Shown here piece after piece: positions 2,437-20,432 of a DNA stretch of 31,732 nt. The stretch is from a virus, in IMG/VR virus record IMGVR_UViG_3300000121_000010, positions 1 through 31,732 of that record; one strand, 5' to 3'. Each line of letters opens with the position of its first letter. Within the stretch, counting starts at the first letter, position 1. The position numbers and the translations under genes are program-made. The notes below the pieces were generated by a model. That model was not told the origin of the DNA and ran no database searches. It saw nothing but the letters and a program-made list of their open reading frames with translations.

Positions 2437-2472
2437 GTAGCTTTTTAAATTTCCGTGTAATTATATAATAAA
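2437..2472 (+). promoter_or_regulatory. Putative phage promoter P2 (groEL)
   Basis: GTAGCTTT at 2437-2444 and GTAATTATATAATA at 2457-2470, with the same 20-base offset as the other sites. The stretch CGTGTAATTATATAATAAA at 2454-2472 is identical over 19 bases to 7865-7883. The ATG of groEL is at 2483, so the leader would be very short. Downstream of both identical copies lies a TTWAATCTAAT sequence just before the start codon. Confidence 0.75.
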
Positions 2473-2482
2473 ATTTAATCTA

Positions 2483-4021
2483 ATGAATCAAATAGTAAAA
2501 AAGTTTAGCTTTGGAAACAAAGGTAGAGAAAAAGTATTTAAGGGTATTGAAACCCTAACAGAAGCTGTAGCCTCAACACTAGGCGGCGGCGGGGAGTGTG
2601 TTATTTTTGAGGATGCGCAGGGCGTACCTGTAATAACGAAAGATGGAGTGACGGTAGCGGAGCTATCAGTGTTGTTGGATCCCGTAGAAAATATGGGTGC
2701 TTCTTTAGTTAAGCAAGCAGCTAGAAGAACAGTTGCTGAAGCAGGAGACGGAACTACAACATCCACAGTATTAGCACACGCAATATTAAAAGAATTCAAC
2801 AAGTCGAAAGATAAGTTTACTAGCAGGGAAAAACGCGATGCTATTAATAAGGTAGTTGAAAAAGTGCTAAAAAGTTTAGACAAGCAAGCAAAGCCTGTTA
2901 ACGGGGGTATGATTGATGAGGTAGCTACTATATCTACAAACAATGACGAAGAGTTAGGTAAACTAATTGCAGATGCATATAGGGCTGTAGATTTAACCGG
3001 GGTTGTTATGATGGAAACATCACAAGATGGCAATACAAGTATAGAAGTAGTTGAAGGTGTGCAATATGAAAAAGGATTTACTAACAACCATTTTGTAACT
3101 AACCCCTCCGCAAATACAGCGGAACTAGTTAACCCTAAGATACTACTTGTTGATTCGGCAGTGGATACAATTAGGCAAATACAAACTATACTAGAACATG
3201 TAATTAAGAATAACATACCTTTATTAATTGTGGGTGATGTTGATCCTAAGGTTGCGGCCGCTTTGGCAATGAACAAAAACAAGGGGTCTATAAAAGTTAA
3301 CATTGTTCCCGCACCAACTCACGGCGTAAATAGGAAAGAAATATTTGATGATTTAGCCTTACTAACCGGCGCTACTGTAATAAGTGAAAACCTAGGTGAT
3401 GATTTAGATTTAATTGATCTGTCTTGTTTAGGTACTTGCGTAAAAGCTGTATCAACATTTAGAGACACAGTATTTCAAATAGACGATGAACAATCCGAAG
3501 AAGTCCAGGCTATTATTACTAATATAAAAAAGCAACTACTTACGGAATCTATAGCAGGCAAGGTAATCAAGCTTGAAAAAAGATTAGCAATGCTTGCGGC
3601 GAAACTAGCAATAGTAAAAGTTGGTGGTAATTCTGATGTAGAATTAAATGAAAAGAAAGATAGGGTGGAGGATGCAATATGCGCTACTAAAGCAGCTATC
3701 AAGGAAGGTGTGGTTGCAGGTGGAGGTATCGCGTTGATTAACGCGGCCAATAGCATTAAAGCAAAAAATTCTGCGGAAGAGATGGTTTTAGAAGCGCTGT
3801 TCTCCCCATATAATACAATAATGAAAAACGCGGGTCTCGAGTTAAGAAGCATCGATAAAAAGAATTTTGGTGTTAATGTAGAAACTGGCAAAATGGTTAA
3901 TATGTTTACAGCAGGTATTATAGACCCTGTATTGGTTACAAAGTCGGCTTTAAAAAACGCCGCTTCAGTTGCTTCGACTATATTGTCAACTAACTGTGTT
4001 ATGTCTAATGTAAGAGAATAA
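2483..4021 (+). CDS. groEL: Phage GroEL-type chaperonin (Cpn60)
   Basis: This 512-aa protein is a full-length group I chaperonin, with equatorial, intermediate and apical domains in the usual order. Conserved elements are ITKDGVTVA (51-59), GDGTTT with the catalytic-site Asp89 (88-93), ISTNNDE, the apical stretch from about residue 185 to 370, RVEDA around 393-397 (equivalent to the hydrolytic Asp398 of E. coli), AGGG near 411-414, and IIDP near 481. Two deviations stand out: the nucleotide-binding TLGPKG loop reads TLGGGG (32-37), and the protein ends at VMSNVRE with no Gly-Gly-Met tail, accounting for most of its shortness against the usual ~545 aa. It should form an ATP-driven folding cage, probably for capsid or tail proteins. 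GroES follows one base later. Confidence 0.95.
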   Translation: MNQIVKKFSFGNKGREKVFKGIETLTEAVASTLGGGGECVIFEDAQGVPVITKDGVTVAELSVLLDPVENMGASLVKQAARRTVAEAGDGTTTSTVLAHAILKEFNKSKDKFTSREKRDAINKVVEKVLKSLDKQAKPVNGGMIDEVATISTNNDEELGKLIADAYRAVDLTGVVMMETSQDGNTSIEVVEGVQYEKGFTNNHFVTNPSANTAELVNPKILLVDSAVDTIRQIQTILEHVIKNNIPLLIVGDVDPKVAAALAMNKNKGSIKVNIVPAPTHGVNRKEIFDDLALLTGATVISENLGDDLDLIDLSCLGTCVKAVSTFRDTVFQIDDEQSEEVQAIITNIKKQLLTESIAGKVIKLEKRLAMLAAKLAIVKVGGNSDVELNEKKDRVEDAICATKAAIKEGVVAGGGIALINAANSIKAKNSAEEMVLEALFSPYNTIMKNAGLELRSIDKKNFGVNVETGKMVNMFTAGIIDPVLVTKSALKNAASVASTILSTNCVMSNVRE

Positions 4022-5201: not shown

Positions 5202-5426
5202 ATGGATCACAACGAAAAAATACACCACAACAACGGCTCTAGTACACCAATTCAGGGAGAATCAGCTTTATGGGATGGGCCATTGGATCAAAGAGGAAGG
5301 CCTCATAAACCAGGCAGCTCAACAGGGCCAAACGGAATGCAAGTGTTAAAATATCCGGTACCTTACGAATCTAAACCTATAACGGAGTGTGCTAAAAAAG
5401 GACGGTACCATGAGGATTACTACTAA
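5202..5426 (+). CDS. Hypothetical small hydrophilic protein
   Basis: This 74-aa protein is rich in Gly, Pro, His and Asn, with a central SALWDGPLDQRGRPHKPGSS segment. There is no recognisable domain, and it looks disordered. Its 3' end overlaps the endolysin gene by 17 bases if that gene starts at 5410. It lies between the low-complexity protein and the lysis enzyme on one transcript. Function unknown. Confidence 0.6.
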   Translation: MDHNEKIHHNNGSSTPIQGESALWDGPLDQRGRPHKPGSSTGPNGMQVLKYPVPYESKPITECAKKGRYHEDYY

Positions 5427-5793
5427 TTTTAAAAAATCAGAATTTGAATGCAAATGTGGTTGCGAGATGCCTATGGAAGTATTTTTTAATATCCAAAAGC
5501 TAGCTAACCAGTTACAGTACGTTCGTGATTTCTTAGAATTACCAATAACATTAACTAACGCATATCGGTGCCGAAGCCACAACAAAGAAGTGGGTGGAGT
5601 TTCTGACAGCCAACATATATTAGGTAAGGCGGCAGATTTGCAAGTTAAAGGATTAACTACAGCGGAATTATATAAAGCAGTAGATATTTTAGCGGAGTAT
5701 AACCACGTTCTTCAAGGAGGATTAGGTTTGTACAACACGTTTGTTCATTACGATATACGCGGCAATAAAACTAGGTGGGACAAAACAAATTAA
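5410..5793 (+). CDS. Peptidase M15-type endolysin (D-Ala-D-Ala/L-Ala-D-Glu peptidase fold)
   Basis: A 127-aa protein from the ATG at 5410 matches the Peptidase_M15_3 / VanY-like fold used by phage lysins. It opens with MRITTNFKKSEFECKCGC, the usual N-terminus of this group. The zinc-binding motif SQHILGKAAD supplies His69 and Asp76, and VHYDIRG supplies His113 with Asp115 beside it. It should cleave peptide bonds in peptidoglycan stems at lysis. No signal peptide is present, so it needs the holin (7442) for release. An upstream GTG at 5389 would add seven residues, but ATG at 5410 gives the family-typical start. The overlap with the preceding gene suggests coupling. Confidence 0.87.
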   Translation: MRITTNFKKSEFECKCGCEMPMEVFFNIQKLANQLQYVRDFLELPITLTNAYRCRSHNKEVGGVSDSQHILGKAADLQVKGLTTAELYKAVDILAEYNHVLQGGLGLYNTFVHYDIRGNKTRWDKTN

Positions 5794-7385: not shown

Positions 7386-7398
7386 TTATTTTTAATAA

Positions 7399-7427
7399 CC
7401 CTGCGGAGTAAAATTCGCGGGGTTTTT
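7399..7427 (+). terminator. Rho-independent terminator
   Basis: Stem CCCTGCG (7399-7405) pairs with CGCGGGG (7416-7422, one G-T pair), with a 10-base loop, then TTTTT. It lies between the 92-aa gene and the holin-like gene. Confidence 0.85.
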
Positions 7428-7441
7428 ATTAAACTAAGAAT

Positions 7442-7846
7442 ATGAGCAAAATAATTTCATGGTTAACTGGAGGACTTATCAAAGAAGTAGGTAATGTAAT
7501 CGACAGCTTAACCACCACAAAGGAAGAAAAACTTGAAATTAAAAAACAATTGCAGGTTATTCTTGAAAAAGCCGAGGCTAACGCTCAGGTAGAAGTTACT
7601 TCAAGATGGAAGTCAGACATGAGCTCTGACAGTTTCCTTTCAAAAAATATTCGGCCAATGGTATTGATATACCTAACGTTTATATTTTCTGTATTAGCAT
7701 TCGCTGATGGAAATATAGGCCAATTTAAAATAGCTGAAGCATACATACCTATTTTTCAAACATTGTTGGTTACCGTTTACGGAGCCTACTTTGTAGGTAG
7801 ATCTTGGGAAAAAGGCCGTAAGATAATGAATAATAAAGACAAATAG
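7442..7846 (+). CDS. Holin-like membrane protein (GTA/3TM holin type)
   Basis: This 134-aa protein starts MSKIISWLTGG followed by a charged helix (about 17-58) with TTTKEEKLEIKKQLQ. Then SFLSKNIRPMVLIYLTFIFSV begins a hydrophobic segment (about 71-89), and a second lies at about 102-119 (IPIFQTLLVTVYGAYFVGRS), ending in a Lys-rich tail. The RPMV-plus-two-membrane-segments arrangement and the W-K-x-D-M linker match the family called holin of 3TMs, for gene-transfer release. It would permeabilise the inner membrane so the M15 endolysin (5410) reaches peptidoglycan. Lysis genes are thus split by about 1.6 kb of basic and structural genes. A terminator lies just upstream and promoter P3 just downstream. 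Confidence 0.83.
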   Translation: MSKIISWLTGGLIKEVGNVIDSLTTTKEEKLEIKKQLQVILEKAEANAQVEVTSRWKSDMSSDSFLSKNIRPMVLIYLTFIFSVLAFADGNIGQFKIAEAYIPIFQTLLVTVYGAYFVGRSWEKGRKIMNNKDK

Positions 7847-7847
7847 A

Positions 7848-7883
7848 GTAGTTTTACAAGATTTCGTGTAATTATATAATAAA
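7848..7883 (+). promoter_or_regulatory. Putative phage promoter P3 (exported protein gene)
   Basis: GTAGTTTT at 7848-7855 and GTAATTATATAATA at 7868-7881, at the standard 20-base offset. CGTGTAATTATATAATAAA at 7865-7883 is identical to the groEL promoter. It starts 2 bases after the holin stop and lies 25 bases before the ATG at 7909. Confidence 0.75.
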
Positions 7884-7908
7884 TATAATAACAATTAAAT
7901 CTAATACT

Positions 7909-8253
7909 ATGAAAAATCTAATTATTGCATTATTTATTACGCTAGCATCATTTACAGTAAAAGCACAAGAACAGTTTAATGGAATCTGGGCAAATAGTGG
8001 CTCTTCATACATGAAAACTATTCTAGCCAGCGAATATAGTGTAATACAGGTATACAATACTAGCTTTGAAGAATATAGAGTAATAAATGAAAAAGTTATA
8101 CCAGGCGATCATACAACGTTTAGCACGGAATTGTATAATAAATCAAATGGATATAGAGTAAATATAAAGTACATATTAAAAGATGCTGACACTATAGAAA
8201 TAGTTTCGTCTGGGTCTTTAAATAGAACAGACACACTAACAAGATTATACTAA
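7909..8253 (+). CDS. Exported small protein with signal peptide, unknown function
   Basis: This 114-aa protein begins MKNLIIALFITLASFTVKAQ, a clear Sec signal peptide with the Bacteroidota-style cleavage site after KA (about residue 19). The mature ~95 residues (QEQFNGIWANSGSSYMKTI onward) have an alternating pattern predicting an all-beta domain and no Cys, so it is not a lipoprotein. GIW near the start resembles small lipocalin-like or lipid-binding beta-barrels in flavobacteria, but that is weak. It is probably secreted to the periplasm or envelope. It has its own promoter, suggesting expression independent of the surrounding structural genes. A superinfection or envelope-modification role is possible but unproven. 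Confidence 0.82.
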   Translation: MKNLIIALFITLASFTVKAQEQFNGIWANSGSSYMKTILASEYSVIQVYNTSFEEYRVINEKVIPGDHTTFSTELYNKSNGYRVNIKYILKDADTIEIVSSGSLNRTDTLTRLY

Positions 8254-8261
8254 AAAAAATT

Positions 8262-9374
8262 ATGGCTTATAAGCAAATTTTCGGCAGAGACAATTTAAAA
8301 AATGAAAATATATCTGCTCTTACGAACGGGGGTGATACTCCTGTAACGGATCCAGTATCAACGGATCCCAAGGAAAAGAAGAAACCTAAAAGTACTTCAA
8401 CTACCGCCACCACTTCTGTGAAAGGAACTGATCCTAATATTCCAGGAAGTAAACGCAAAGGCAGAATATTTACAGATACGGTAACCACTGTTTATGATGG
8501 CACAACTGGAACTGAAAAGCCTGGTAAACCTACGGGACCTACTCAACCTTTTAACAATCCAGCAGTACCTGGACAAACTTACCAGGAATTTATAGATGCA
8601 CCTCCGGGTTCTCCGGGTAAACCAGCCAAACCTACAAAAACGCCTGATACTCCAGGAAGAACAAGTGTAACTAGTTCGACTAGATTCGTAGCGGATCCAC
8701 TAGCAATGCCAATAAGTTTACAATCTGAAGGGCCTAGCCATAAGTTTGATATGCCTAAAGGAGAGCCTCTTGATTTTTCTAAAGATGGTTCAAAACCTTT
8801 TTCGGATCTTGTAGCCATAAAAGTTTCCCGAGGAGGAGGGGGCTCCGAAGCGAGTGATAGCAATAGGCCAAGAAGAATGATGGGTACACTTGTTGACGGT
8901 GGTTTGCGGGAGCGTACTATGGAGGAAACAGTTGCTACCCGTGGGGAAGCATCTCGTCTTAAGGCGCTAGTAAGATACAACAACTCTGAGTTAAGAGACA
9001 GATACAGCCCTGAAAACATAACCAAAAACTGGAAAGGAAATGCTCCGGGGCTGGAAAACGCGTTGGAAAGAGGCAGAAATCTCATCAATAACAATTTGTC
9101 GACAGTAGATGGTTTTAGGGATGTTTATGATGCAGAAGCTGCAACTATACAGGGAGGCCAAACTCGGGTTAACAACAAAAATAGGCCAGCAAAAAATGCG
9201 GCGGAAAAAGAAAAACGATCAAAATTAAAAGCACAGAAAGGAGCAGATGCCGCTGCAAAAGCTGCTGCGCTAAAAGCTAAGCGAGATAAAGAAAGAGCAG
9301 CTAAAGTTGCGGCTATAGAAAAAAAGAAAAAAGAAAGAGCAGCTAAAGTTGCAAAAAACAAAAAACGTAACTAA
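8262..9374 (+). CDS. Hypothetical protein, disordered with basic coiled-coil C-terminus
   Basis: This 370-aa protein has a long Pro/Thr/Gly/Lys-rich, probably disordered N-terminal half (PGKPTGPTQPF, GSPGKPAKPTKTPDTPG). The centre, about residues 225-295, carries RASL-like charged helices (TRGEASRLKALVRYNNSELRD). The C-terminal Ala/Lys tail (about 310-370), with repeated KERAAKVA units, is likely an extended helix. No known domain is recognised. The composition links it to the basic proteins at 5800-7029. It starts after CTAAAAAAAATT with no Shine-Dalgarno, eight bases after the exported protein gene, so promoter P3 may also drive it. Confidence 0.7.
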   Translation: MAYKQIFGRDNLKNENISALTNGGDTPVTDPVSTDPKEKKKPKSTSTTATTSVKGTDPNIPGSKRKGRIFTDTVTTVYDGTTGTEKPGKPTGPTQPFNNPAVPGQTYQEFIDAPPGSPGKPAKPTKTPDTPGRTSVTSSTRFVADPLAMPISLQSEGPSHKFDMPKGEPLDFSKDGSKPFSDLVAIKVSRGGGGSEASDSNRPRRMMGTLVDGGLRERTMEETVATRGEASRLKALVRYNNSELRDRYSPENITKNWKGNAPGLENALERGRNLINNNLSTVDGFRDVYDAEAATIQGGQTRVNNKNRPAKNAAEKEKRSKLKAQKGADAAAKAAALKAKRDKERAAKVAAIEKKKKERAAKVAKNKKRN

Positions 9375-10177: not shown

Positions 10178-10405
10178 ATGGAAAGTGTTATAAGAAAAAT
10201 TAGTATCGGGGCTGACTATAAAAACGAAGCAATGCACTACTCTGTTAAACAGACAGTTTACGGCGGTCACGAAATTTCTCATATAATATTTGAAGAGTCT
10301 GATAATTCTTATAACATATTTATTAAGAAAGTAGATGAGATAATGCCATGGAAGAAGTTTAATTCTAACATGGCAATATCCGTTGAGTATGACCTAGAGT
10401 ATTAA
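10178..10405 (+). CDS. Hypothetical small protein
   Basis: This 75-aa protein has mixed alpha/beta character: ESVIRKISIGADYKNEAMHY, then VYGGHEISHIIFEESDNSYNIFIKKVDE. No motif is recognised. Its stop overlaps the next start by one base (TAATG), which couples it to the tandem GroES-like protein. Function unknown. Confidence 0.75.
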   Translation: MESVIRKISIGADYKNEAMHYSVKQTVYGGHEISHIIFEESDNSYNIFIKKVDEIMPWKKFNSNMAISVEYDLEY

Positions 10406-18567: not shown

Positions 18568-19407
18568 ATGGCTAATAAAAAACCAGTAGCTAAAAAAGCT
18601 ACGCAAGTAGAAGAGATTGTAGAAAAAGTTACAATACCTACTATAAAAGAAACAAAAGTAGAGTCTAAACCTCAATGGGAAATTAAGGATAGGATATACT
18701 ACTTAGTGGGAGACAAATCCCCTTTAACATTAACAATACCAGGAAAGCATACAAGAAAACATTCTTTGTTGTATTTTGACATAGAAAACGGGAAGCAAAA
18801 AGAACTTAGATATGCTACTAACCATGACTCTCCTTTTAAAGAAGAGCAAGAAGGTGAGGCAACATTAGGGCATATAATGTTTAGAAATGGTGACTTAAAA
18901 GTACCAAAAGAAAAACAAAATTTGCAAAAGCTACTTTCTTTATATCATCCCTTAAAAGGCAGGCTATATCAAGAATTTGACGCAGTTGAAGAAGCTTATG
19001 ATGATTTAGAACTACTAGATATACAAACAGATGCAGCTGTGTTTGCCAGAGAAATGGATATTGACGATGCCGAGGCTATACTGCGAGTTGAAATGGGTAC
19101 TTCGGTAAACAAATTATCTTCTAAGGAAATAAAAAGAGACCTAAGATTATTCGCAAGAAGCAATCCTTATTTATTCTTAGAGTTAGCTCAGGATGAAAAT
19201 GTAGGACTTAGGAATACAGCTATTAAAGCAGCAGAAGCTGGCATTATTGCTTTATCTCAAGATCAAAGAACATTTTCTTGGGCCTCTAATGGAAGAAAGC
19301 TAATGAATGTGCCGTTTGATGAAAACCCATATTCAGCAATGGCAGCTTATTTCAAAACCGACGAAGGTGGAGAAGTATTTAGATCTATAGAAAAAAAGAT
19401 TAATTAG
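18568..19407 (+). CDS. Hypothetical protein following capsid gene, probably virion-associated
   Basis: From the ATG at 18568 the protein has 279 aa: MANKKPVAKKATQ with a Lys-rich disordered N-terminus, a beta-rich part (about 35-105: EIKDRIYYLVGDKSPLTLTI, LLYFDIENGKQKELRYATNH, HIMFRNGDLKVPKEK) and helical C-terminal segments from about 125 (LYQEFDAVEEAYDD, DIQTDAAVFAREMD). The type is familiar from marine phages after the capsid gene, without known function; it may be a head-completion or accessory head protein. The frame is open upstream from a TTG at 18532, but that lies inside the terminator stem and is not a credible start. Its TAG stop overlaps promoter P4. Confidence 0.75.
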   Translation: MANKKPVAKKATQVEEIVEKVTIPTIKETKVESKPQWEIKDRIYYLVGDKSPLTLTIPGKHTRKHSLLYFDIENGKQKELRYATNHDSPFKEEQEGEATLGHIMFRNGDLKVPKEKQNLQKLLSLYHPLKGRLYQEFDAVEEAYDDLELLDIQTDAAVFAREMDIDDAEAILRVEMGTSVNKLSSKEIKRDLRLFARSNPYLFLELAQDENVGLRNTAIKAAEAGIIALSQDQRTFSWASNGRKLMNVPFDENPYSAMAAYFKTDEGGEVFRSIEKKIN

Positions 19408-19440
19408 TAGTTTTTAAAAAAACTATGTGATTATATTATA
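19407..19440 (+). promoter_or_regulatory. Putative phage promoter P4 (neck/tail module)
   Basis: GTAGTTTT at 19407-19414 begins on the last base of the upstream TAG stop. GTGATTATATTATA follows at 19427-19440, at the standard 20-base offset with two differences from the groEL site. It lies 68 bases before the ATG at 19509, leaving a leader that contains a hairpin. Confidence 0.7.
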
Positions 19441-19455
19441 GATGGTGAATTAATT

Positions 19456-19485
19456 TTAGCCGGCTTCATCACTGGGGCCGGTTAA
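19456..19485 (+). promoter_or_regulatory. 5' leader hairpin before neck gene
   Basis: TTAGCCGGC (19456-19464) pairs with GCCGGTTAA (19477-19485) with one G-T pair, around a 12-base loop. It lies downstream of promoter P4 and upstream of the ATG at 19509. The following bases (TATTTATAATAAAAAG) are a poor U-tract, so it could be a weak terminator for the preceding unit or a stabilising or regulatory leader structure. Confidence 0.55.
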
Positions 19486-19508
19486 TATTTATAATAAAAA
19501 GAAATAAA

Positions 19509-20432
19509 ATGGCAGTAAATGTAGATATAGTTTATAAAACAGTATTACTTATTCTGAATAAAGAGCAAAGAGGTAATTTAACTCCGGATGAATTCAATAA
19601 GGTTGCTACTCAAGTGCAGTTGGAGATATTCGAGAGCTACTTTGATACGCTTAATCAGCAATTACGTAGACCAGATAATGATACAGAGTATGGAGATCGC
19701 ATTAAGAATGTAGATAATAATATAGCTGTATTTAAAGCATACGGTAATGCAACTTATGTGCCAGCAGGAAAGTATTTTACTTTACCAGTAATTTCAAGTT
19801 CTTTAACGCCTTCACCTACTCAATCGATTACGGGAAACGGAATTTCTATATCATTTCCTTTTACAACAATATCTTCTTCCCAATTACAAACCAGCGTGAT
19901 TACAGCTACAATAAATGGGGTGTCAACAACGGCATTTACCATAAGCGGGGCTAACGTTGTATTTGATTCTATACCAGCTTTAAATGATGCGATAATTGTT
20001 ACAGCTGCTCCAGAAAACTTTTATAAGTTAGGTACAGTAATATATAAAGATTCTAACGAAGCGCAGCTATCTCAGCGCAACGAGCTTCTATACTTAAACA
20101 GCAATCCTTTAGTAGCTCCCACGGAAACATATCCCATATATTTATATGAGAATCATAAATTATACTTGTACCCGCAAACTATTACATCGGATATAAGTAT
20201 TAGTTACTTAAGAAAACCCGTGGACGTAATTTGGAACTTCACAATACCATCGGGTCAAAACTATTACCAATACAATCCAACTAACTCAATTAATTTTGAG
20301 TTATCAAAAACAGAGCAAGCAAATATTATTTTAAAAATATTGCTTTATTCAGGAGTTGTAATACGAGATCCTTCGATAATAAACGTAGCAGCACAGCAAG
20401 TGCAACAAGAAAATCAACGCTCAATAATGTAA
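19509..20432 (+). CDS. Probable head-tail adaptor/neck protein
   Basis: This 307-aa protein starts MAVNVDIVYKTVLLILNKEQ with a helical N-terminal domain (about 1-50, TPDEFNKVATQVQLEIFESY), followed by a beta-rich middle containing an insertion (about 95-170, Ser/Thr/Ile-rich) and the motif LYLYPQTITSDISISYLRKPV (about 217-237). The helix-plus-late-strand pattern matches connector or adaptor proteins found after capsid genes of short-tailed marine phages. It is the first gene after promoter P4 and is spaced three bases from the next neck protein. No enzymatic motif is seen. Confidence 0.72.
   Translation: MAVNVDIVYKTVLLILNKEQRGNLTPDEFNKVATQVQLEIFESYFDTLNQQLRRPDNDTEYGDRIKNVDNNIAVFKAYGNATYVPAGKYFTLPVISSSLTPSPTQSITGNGISISFPFTTISSSQLQTSVITATINGVSTTAFTISGANVVFDSIPALNDAIIVTAAPENFYKLGTVIYKDSNEAQLSQRNELLYLNSNPLVAPTETYPIYLYENHKLYLYPQTITSDISISYLRKPVDVIWNFTIPSGQNYYQYNPTNSINFELSKTEQANIILKILLYSGVVIRDPSIINVAAQQVQQENQRSIM

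What the first reader, a model, noticed from the sequence alone, without database searches (positions are those of the whole stretch)
7848..8253. Exported phage protein with its own promoter
Seen: a clean Sec signal peptide (MKNLIIALFITLASFTVKAQ) on a 114-aa protein, driven by a promoter identical over 19 bases to that of groEL. Exported proteins in phage structural clusters are rare apart from lysis functions, and an independent promoter suggests timing or dose of its own. Candidate roles are envelope modification, superinfection exclusion or release.
Basis: partly seen in the sequence, partly recalled or inferred. Interest (0 to 1): 0.62.

Follow-up and report, generated by a model that had tools for sequence, protein, structure and literature searches.

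The report
Secreted barrel protein of marine flavophages
A virus of marine flavobacteria carries a small, fast-changing, barrel-shaped protein that is predicted to be exported into the envelope of the infected cell from one of the virus's few strong promoters; it belongs to a widespread but undescribed accessory family, and its job is most likely to alter the envelope, for example to keep rival phages out.

Summary
ORF 7909-8253 (114 aa) has a Sec signal peptide that follows the Bacteroidetes Q-rule (cut A19|Q20). A 36-nt promoter-like element at 7848-7883 shares 19 consecutive bases with the one before groEL; this is not chance (0 of 100 shuffles). The element is one of three late copies of a phage-wide promoter class that looks sigma70-like rather than like the host consensus, and the phages encode a sigma70-like protein. 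It probably heads a transcription unit, not this gene alone. The gene belongs to a new family (about 75 distinct loci, plus divergent relatives) found in an abundant group of marine flavobacterial podophages. No Pfam or PHROG family matches. Both modelled members are eight-stranded avidin-like barrels. It is accessory (13 of 30 anchored loci), single-copy, and almost always near the holin. It is the only Sec-exported protein found in two 53-58 kb relatives. The signal peptide is conserved while the mature barrel diverges and recombines. Relatives include one lipoprotein and a few chromosomal copies. Best reading: an accessory, periplasm-acting envelope effector, most likely of superinfection-exclusion type; the mechanism is inferred. 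A periplasmic lysis-timing role is the main rival. Spanin and virion roles fit poorly.

The parts
7848..7883 (+). Promoter element GTAGTTTTACAAGATTTCGTGTAATTATATAATAAA (sigma70-like TTTACA 7853-7858, TATAAT 7875-7880)
   Evidence: kept 10-25 nt upstream of the gene in most relatives
7884..7908 (+). 25-nt leader, no Shine-Dalgarno, A at -3 and -6
   Evidence: conserved in relatives; flavobacterial initiation rules PMC6847099
7909..7965 (+). Sec signal peptide, 19 codons, predicted SPI cleavage A19|Q20
   Evidence: Q20 invariant in 20 relatives; Q-rule PMC5837995
7966..8253 (+). Mature domain: eight-stranded avidin-like beta-barrel (GxW motif at residues 25-27), plus stop codon
   Evidence: AlphaFold2 model, mature blocks pLDDT at least 92; VIA Z 11.3
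8262..9374 (+). Next gene: conserved N-terminal 25-40 aa, variable body; likely cotranscribed
   Evidence: 9-nt gap
7442..7846 (+). Holin (PF11351 GTA_holin_3TM, phrog_3427)
   Evidence: within 2.5 kb of the gene in 38 of 40 loci
5389..5793 (+). Peptidase M15 endolysin
7397..7424 (+). Intrinsic-terminator-like hairpin upstream of the holin
2437..2472 (+). Same promoter element before groEL (2483-4021)
19407..19442 (+). Third, weaker copy before the virion gene at 19509

Best explanation
The gene encodes a small soluble periplasmic (possibly later secreted) protein with an avidin-like beta-barrel, exported by the host Sec/SPI pathway and trimmed by the Bacteroidetes Q-rule. It is an accessory gene of a group of lytic-type marine flavobacterial podophages. 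It is transcribed with the late genes from one of three late copies of a phage-wide promoter, probably read by RNA polymerase carrying a phage-encoded sigma-like factor. It most likely acts in the envelope of the infected cell by binding a host or phage envelope component, so that further phages cannot productively infect, or released progeny are not lost on receptors: a superinfection-exclusion-type effector. Shown computationally: ORF, signal, promoter conservation, fold, accessory distribution, variability. Inferred: periplasmic residence, sigma assignment, binding, and exclusion.
For: Export: signal peptide conserved, Q at +1 invariant in the 20-member alignment; one relative (L189) is a predicted lipoprotein. 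Sole Sec-exported protein found in two 53-58 kb relatives, G001 and G002. Accessory: 13 of 30 anchored loci carry a member; single-copy. Mature domain diverges (pN 0.31) while its signal peptide (0.04) and holin (0.02) do not; 85 pairs share a signal peptide but not a mature domain and 27 the reverse, as for genes swapped under changing selection. Small-barrel binding fold in two members 17% identical. Promoter kept with the gene across different gene orders. Precedent: T5 Llp, a small exported periplasmic protein encoded beside a virion gene that blocks the receptor (PMC9586334).
Against: No direct functional evidence. In close pairs dN/dS is only 0.10 (holin 0.035), so no positive selection is shown. 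Distances do not track tail-fibre genes specifically over 9 genomes (r 0.16-0.35; underpowered). Late-gene promoter sharing fits early exclusion less well. Constant holin neighbourhood fits a lysis role at least as well.
Confidence: 0.4

Rival explanations
1. Periplasmic lysis-timing factor (antiholin-like, in the manner of T4 RI): the secreted barrel binds the periplasmic loop of the neighbouring holin and delays or tunes lysis.
For: PF11351-type holin within 2.5 kb in 38 of 40 loci, on either side, often adjacent. T4 RI is a small protein with a cleavable signal peptide acting on the holin (PMC8385771).
Against: Many loci have the holin but no family member. The holin is nearly invariant where the barrel is about 55% identical. 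The synteny block is conserved anyway. L042 keeps the barrel with a different lysis set.
Confidence: 0.25
2. Ligand-binding secreted protein of another kind (metabolite or envelope-polymer binder, or inhibitor of a host periplasmic enzyme), acquired from or shared with the host.
For: Avidin/FABP/lipocalin-like folds bind small ligands. Three of 299 genomes of the flavobacterial family sampled carry relatives, apparently chromosomal.
Against: No conserved known ligand signature; host copies are rare.
Confidence: 0.2
3. Outer-membrane disruption protein replacing the missing spanin.
For: No spanin-like protein seen in the near-complete window-type relatives G001 and G002.
Against: L042, L165, L167 and L180 carry a lipobox u-spanin-like protein together with a family member. 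The window protein has no lipobox or C-terminal TM segment.
Confidence: 0.08
4. Virion or structural protein with a chance hydrophobic N-terminus.
For: Lies among packaging and structural genes.
Against: Signal peptide and Q at +1 conserved; virions assemble in the cytoplasm.
Confidence: 0.03

Closest known systems
Phage T5 Llp / T1-type Cor superinfection-exclusion lipoproteins
   Same: Small exported phage protein beside a virion gene, envelope-acting (PMC9586334)
   Different: Llp is a lipoprotein; this one is an SPI product (one relative, L189, is a predicted lipoprotein). No sequence relation was tested; target unknown
Phage T4 antiholin RI
   Same: Small phage protein with a cleavable Sec signal, possible action on the holin from the periplasm
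   Different: This protein is predicted as a beta-barrel; its holin has only a short predicted periplasmic loop, and many holin-bearing relatives lack the gene
Avidin/streptavidin and lipocalin/FABP small barrels
   Same: Eight-stranded up-and-down barrel, GxW near the first strand (VIA Z 11.3, rmsd 2.2, 96 aligned, 12% identity)
   Different: No biotin-type Trp set (usually one Trp), no sequence match
DUF6705 (PF20448)
   Same: Weak match in two of 20 members (best E 0.043)
   Different: Far from significance; not a member on this evidence

Membership tests
Bacteroidetes Sec/SPI (Q-rule) substrate | Signal peptide with Q at +1 after cleavage | tested here: met
   Q20 invariant in 20 relatives; rule from PMC5837995. 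Cleavage itself not observed
Avidin/streptavidin | Eight-stranded meander barrel fold | tested here: met
   Predicted model only:
Avidin/streptavidin | Biotin-binding Trp set | tested here: not met
   86 of 95 family sequences have a single Trp, in the GxW motif; biotin contacts recalled from general knowledge
Avidin/streptavidin | Sequence homology | tested here: not met
   No avidin-type chain in hmmsearch of PDB sequences at E up to 10
T5 Llp/Cor-type exclusion protein | Lipoprotein signal | tested here: not met
   No lipobox in the window protein; lipobox in relative L189
T5 Llp/Cor-type exclusion protein | Blocks infection by binding the receptor | not testable with these tools
   -
Antiholin (T4 RI-like) | Binds and inhibits the holin | not testable with these tools
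   -
Antiholin (T4 RI-like) | Constant partner of the holin | tested here: inconclusive
   Near the holin in most carriers, but many holin-bearing loci lack the gene
Spanin | Lipobox and/or TM segment bridging the envelope | tested here: not met
DUF6705 (PF20448) | Score above gathering threshold | tested here: not met
Host sigma-ABfr promoter | -33 TTTG and -7 TAnnTTTG | tested here: not met
   Element reads TTTACA/TATAAT; consensus from PMC6847099

The most novel reading that the evidence does not exclude
An abundant marine flavophage group carries a rapidly shuffled, undescribed family of secreted avidin-fold barrels that act as allele-specific envelope (superinfection-exclusion) factors, expressed through a phage-encoded sigma factor and its own E. 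coli-like promoter in a host phylum whose polymerase uses a different promoter.
Probability: 0.25. Interest if true: 0.68.

Novelty: new variant of a known kind. Interest (0 to 1): 0.45.

Why it matters
If right, it gives marine flavobacterial phages, abundant but hardly studied genetically, a named candidate for controlling who may infect an already infected cell, with some 75 natural loci to test. The conserved promoter together with a phage sigma-like gene also makes phage transcription takeover in Bacteroidota directly testable.

Tried and rejected
Synonymous conservation of the signal-peptide DNA first looked like a recombination anchor. A control on other genes showed low synonymous change in the first 20 codons is common there (groEL 0.08 against 0.57), so that claim was dropped; only the amino-acid contrast is special. 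Positive selection: not supported (dN/dS 0.10 in close pairs). Coupling with tail-fibre genes: no specific signal, small sample, some broken ORFs. Late-only promoter: rejected, as weaker copies occur in the early region. Spanin substitute: unlikely, because spanin-like genes coexist with family members. Searches without hits: INPHARED tblastn with three members; GTDB genome scan with the family; Pfam and PHROGs; PDB sequences; viral fold library, nothing below E 0.001. The signal-peptide and spanin calls rest on a crude home-made scan, not SignalP.

Full report
What is there. The ORF at 7909-8253 encodes 114 aa with a Sec signal peptide. It starts 62 nt after the end of a holin gene and ends 9 nt before the next ORF start. 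An M15 endolysin lies at 5389-5793. The terminase, portal and virion genes follow. The predicted cut is A19|Q20, which fits the Bacteroidetes Q-rule (PMC5837995); Q20 is invariant in a 20-member alignment.

Promoter. The 36-mer at 7848-7883 matches the one before groEL at 30 of 36 positions with 19 in a row; no exact repeat of 19 arose in 100 shuffles. A PWM from relatives finds only three sites in the window. In 53-58 kb relatives such as G001 and G002 the same three late sites recur, before groEL, this gene and a virion gene. Weaker copies lie in the early region, one just after the gene of a sigma70-like protein (Pfam Sigma70_r2 and r4, E about 0.001, below the curated cut-offs; orthologues in several contigs). 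The element looks like TTGACA/TATAAT and not like the host TTTG/TAnnTTTG (PMC6847099). A phage sigma reading it is an inference. No terminator-like site on the + strand was found between this gene and the next ones, so the promoter probably heads a unit. Distant relatives such as L042, L084 and L121 lack the element.

Family. Pattern scans gave about 75 distinct loci, in the same kind of phage contig, with one clear copy in each of 15 long contigs. Anchoring instead on the conserved gene at 10178 shows the family is accessory: 13 of 30 loci with at least 5 kb upstream carry a member. Those members can be as little as 17-28% identical to the window protein, sharing the signal, GxW and little else; one, L189, is a predicted lipoprotein. 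No known family matches. Three of 299 sampled flavobacterial-family genomes hold relatives; the neighbouring genes look chromosomal, and one copy is truncated. MAG binning limits that statement. The host is inferred as Bacteroidota from the Q-rule, from related phages of Flavobacterium and Cellulophaga and from the MAGs holding related terminases, though some of those are labelled as other phyla.

Fold. AlphaFold2 with 20 relatives gives a confident eight-stranded up-and-down barrel; best VIA match is streptavidin, Z 11.3, rmsd 2.2, 96 aligned. A relative about 19% identical in the alignment gives the same strand order and avidin-like matches. The biotin Trp set is absent. A shared fold shows no function.

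Evolution. Across 12 relatives the first 20 codons hardly change in protein (pN 0.04) while the mature part does (0.31); no other gene tested shows this split. Signal and mature types are reassorted: 85 pairs share the signal but not the mature part, 27 the reverse. L006 and L009 are identical up to about residue 82 and then differ. Close pairs are under purifying selection. L004 shares this gene unchanged and the next ones nearly so while the holin and terminase differ more, suggesting block transfer.

Mechanism. An accessory, exported, recombining small binding-type fold, in the late region, suggests an envelope effector. Superinfection exclusion in the manner of T5 Llp (PMC9586334) is my first choice; a T4 RI-like periplasmic lysis timer (PMC8385771) is second, because a holin lies within 2.5 kb in 38 of 40 loci on either side. 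Against the timer, the holin is almost invariant where the barrel varies, and many holin-bearing loci lack the gene. A spanin role is unlikely because spanin-like genes coexist with members. None of this is functional proof.

Verdict. It is a new exported accessory family of a known general kind.

Noticed in passing
window 19407-19508: Third promoter copy followed by a leader that is nearly invariant across relatives, with a GC-rich hairpin TTAGCCGGCTTCATCACTGGGGCCGGTTAA (19456-19485) before the gene at 19509; terminator-like or a leader RNA element.
   Followed up: partly
L098:7398-8165 (also L135, L136, L139, L150): Phage-encoded sigma70-like protein, with a copy of the promoter class just downstream.
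   Followed up: partly
window 8262-9374: Protein with a conserved 25-40 aa N-terminus (MAYKQ...ALTNGG) and unrelated bodies between relatives, directly downstream of the exported gene.
   Followed up: partly
L042:9708-10151; similar in L165, L167, L180, L181: Lipobox proteins resembling u-spanins (C-terminal TM segment seen in L042) in other phages of the group, while window-type relatives show none.
   Followed up: partly
L260:1721-1975: Truncated phage-type copy of the family near a resolvase-like gene in a flavobacterial MAG.
   Followed up: no
L259:14131-16058: Three tandem related lipoprotein genes (SCMKSEITQHWYE) near a chromosomal relative of the family.
   Followed up: no
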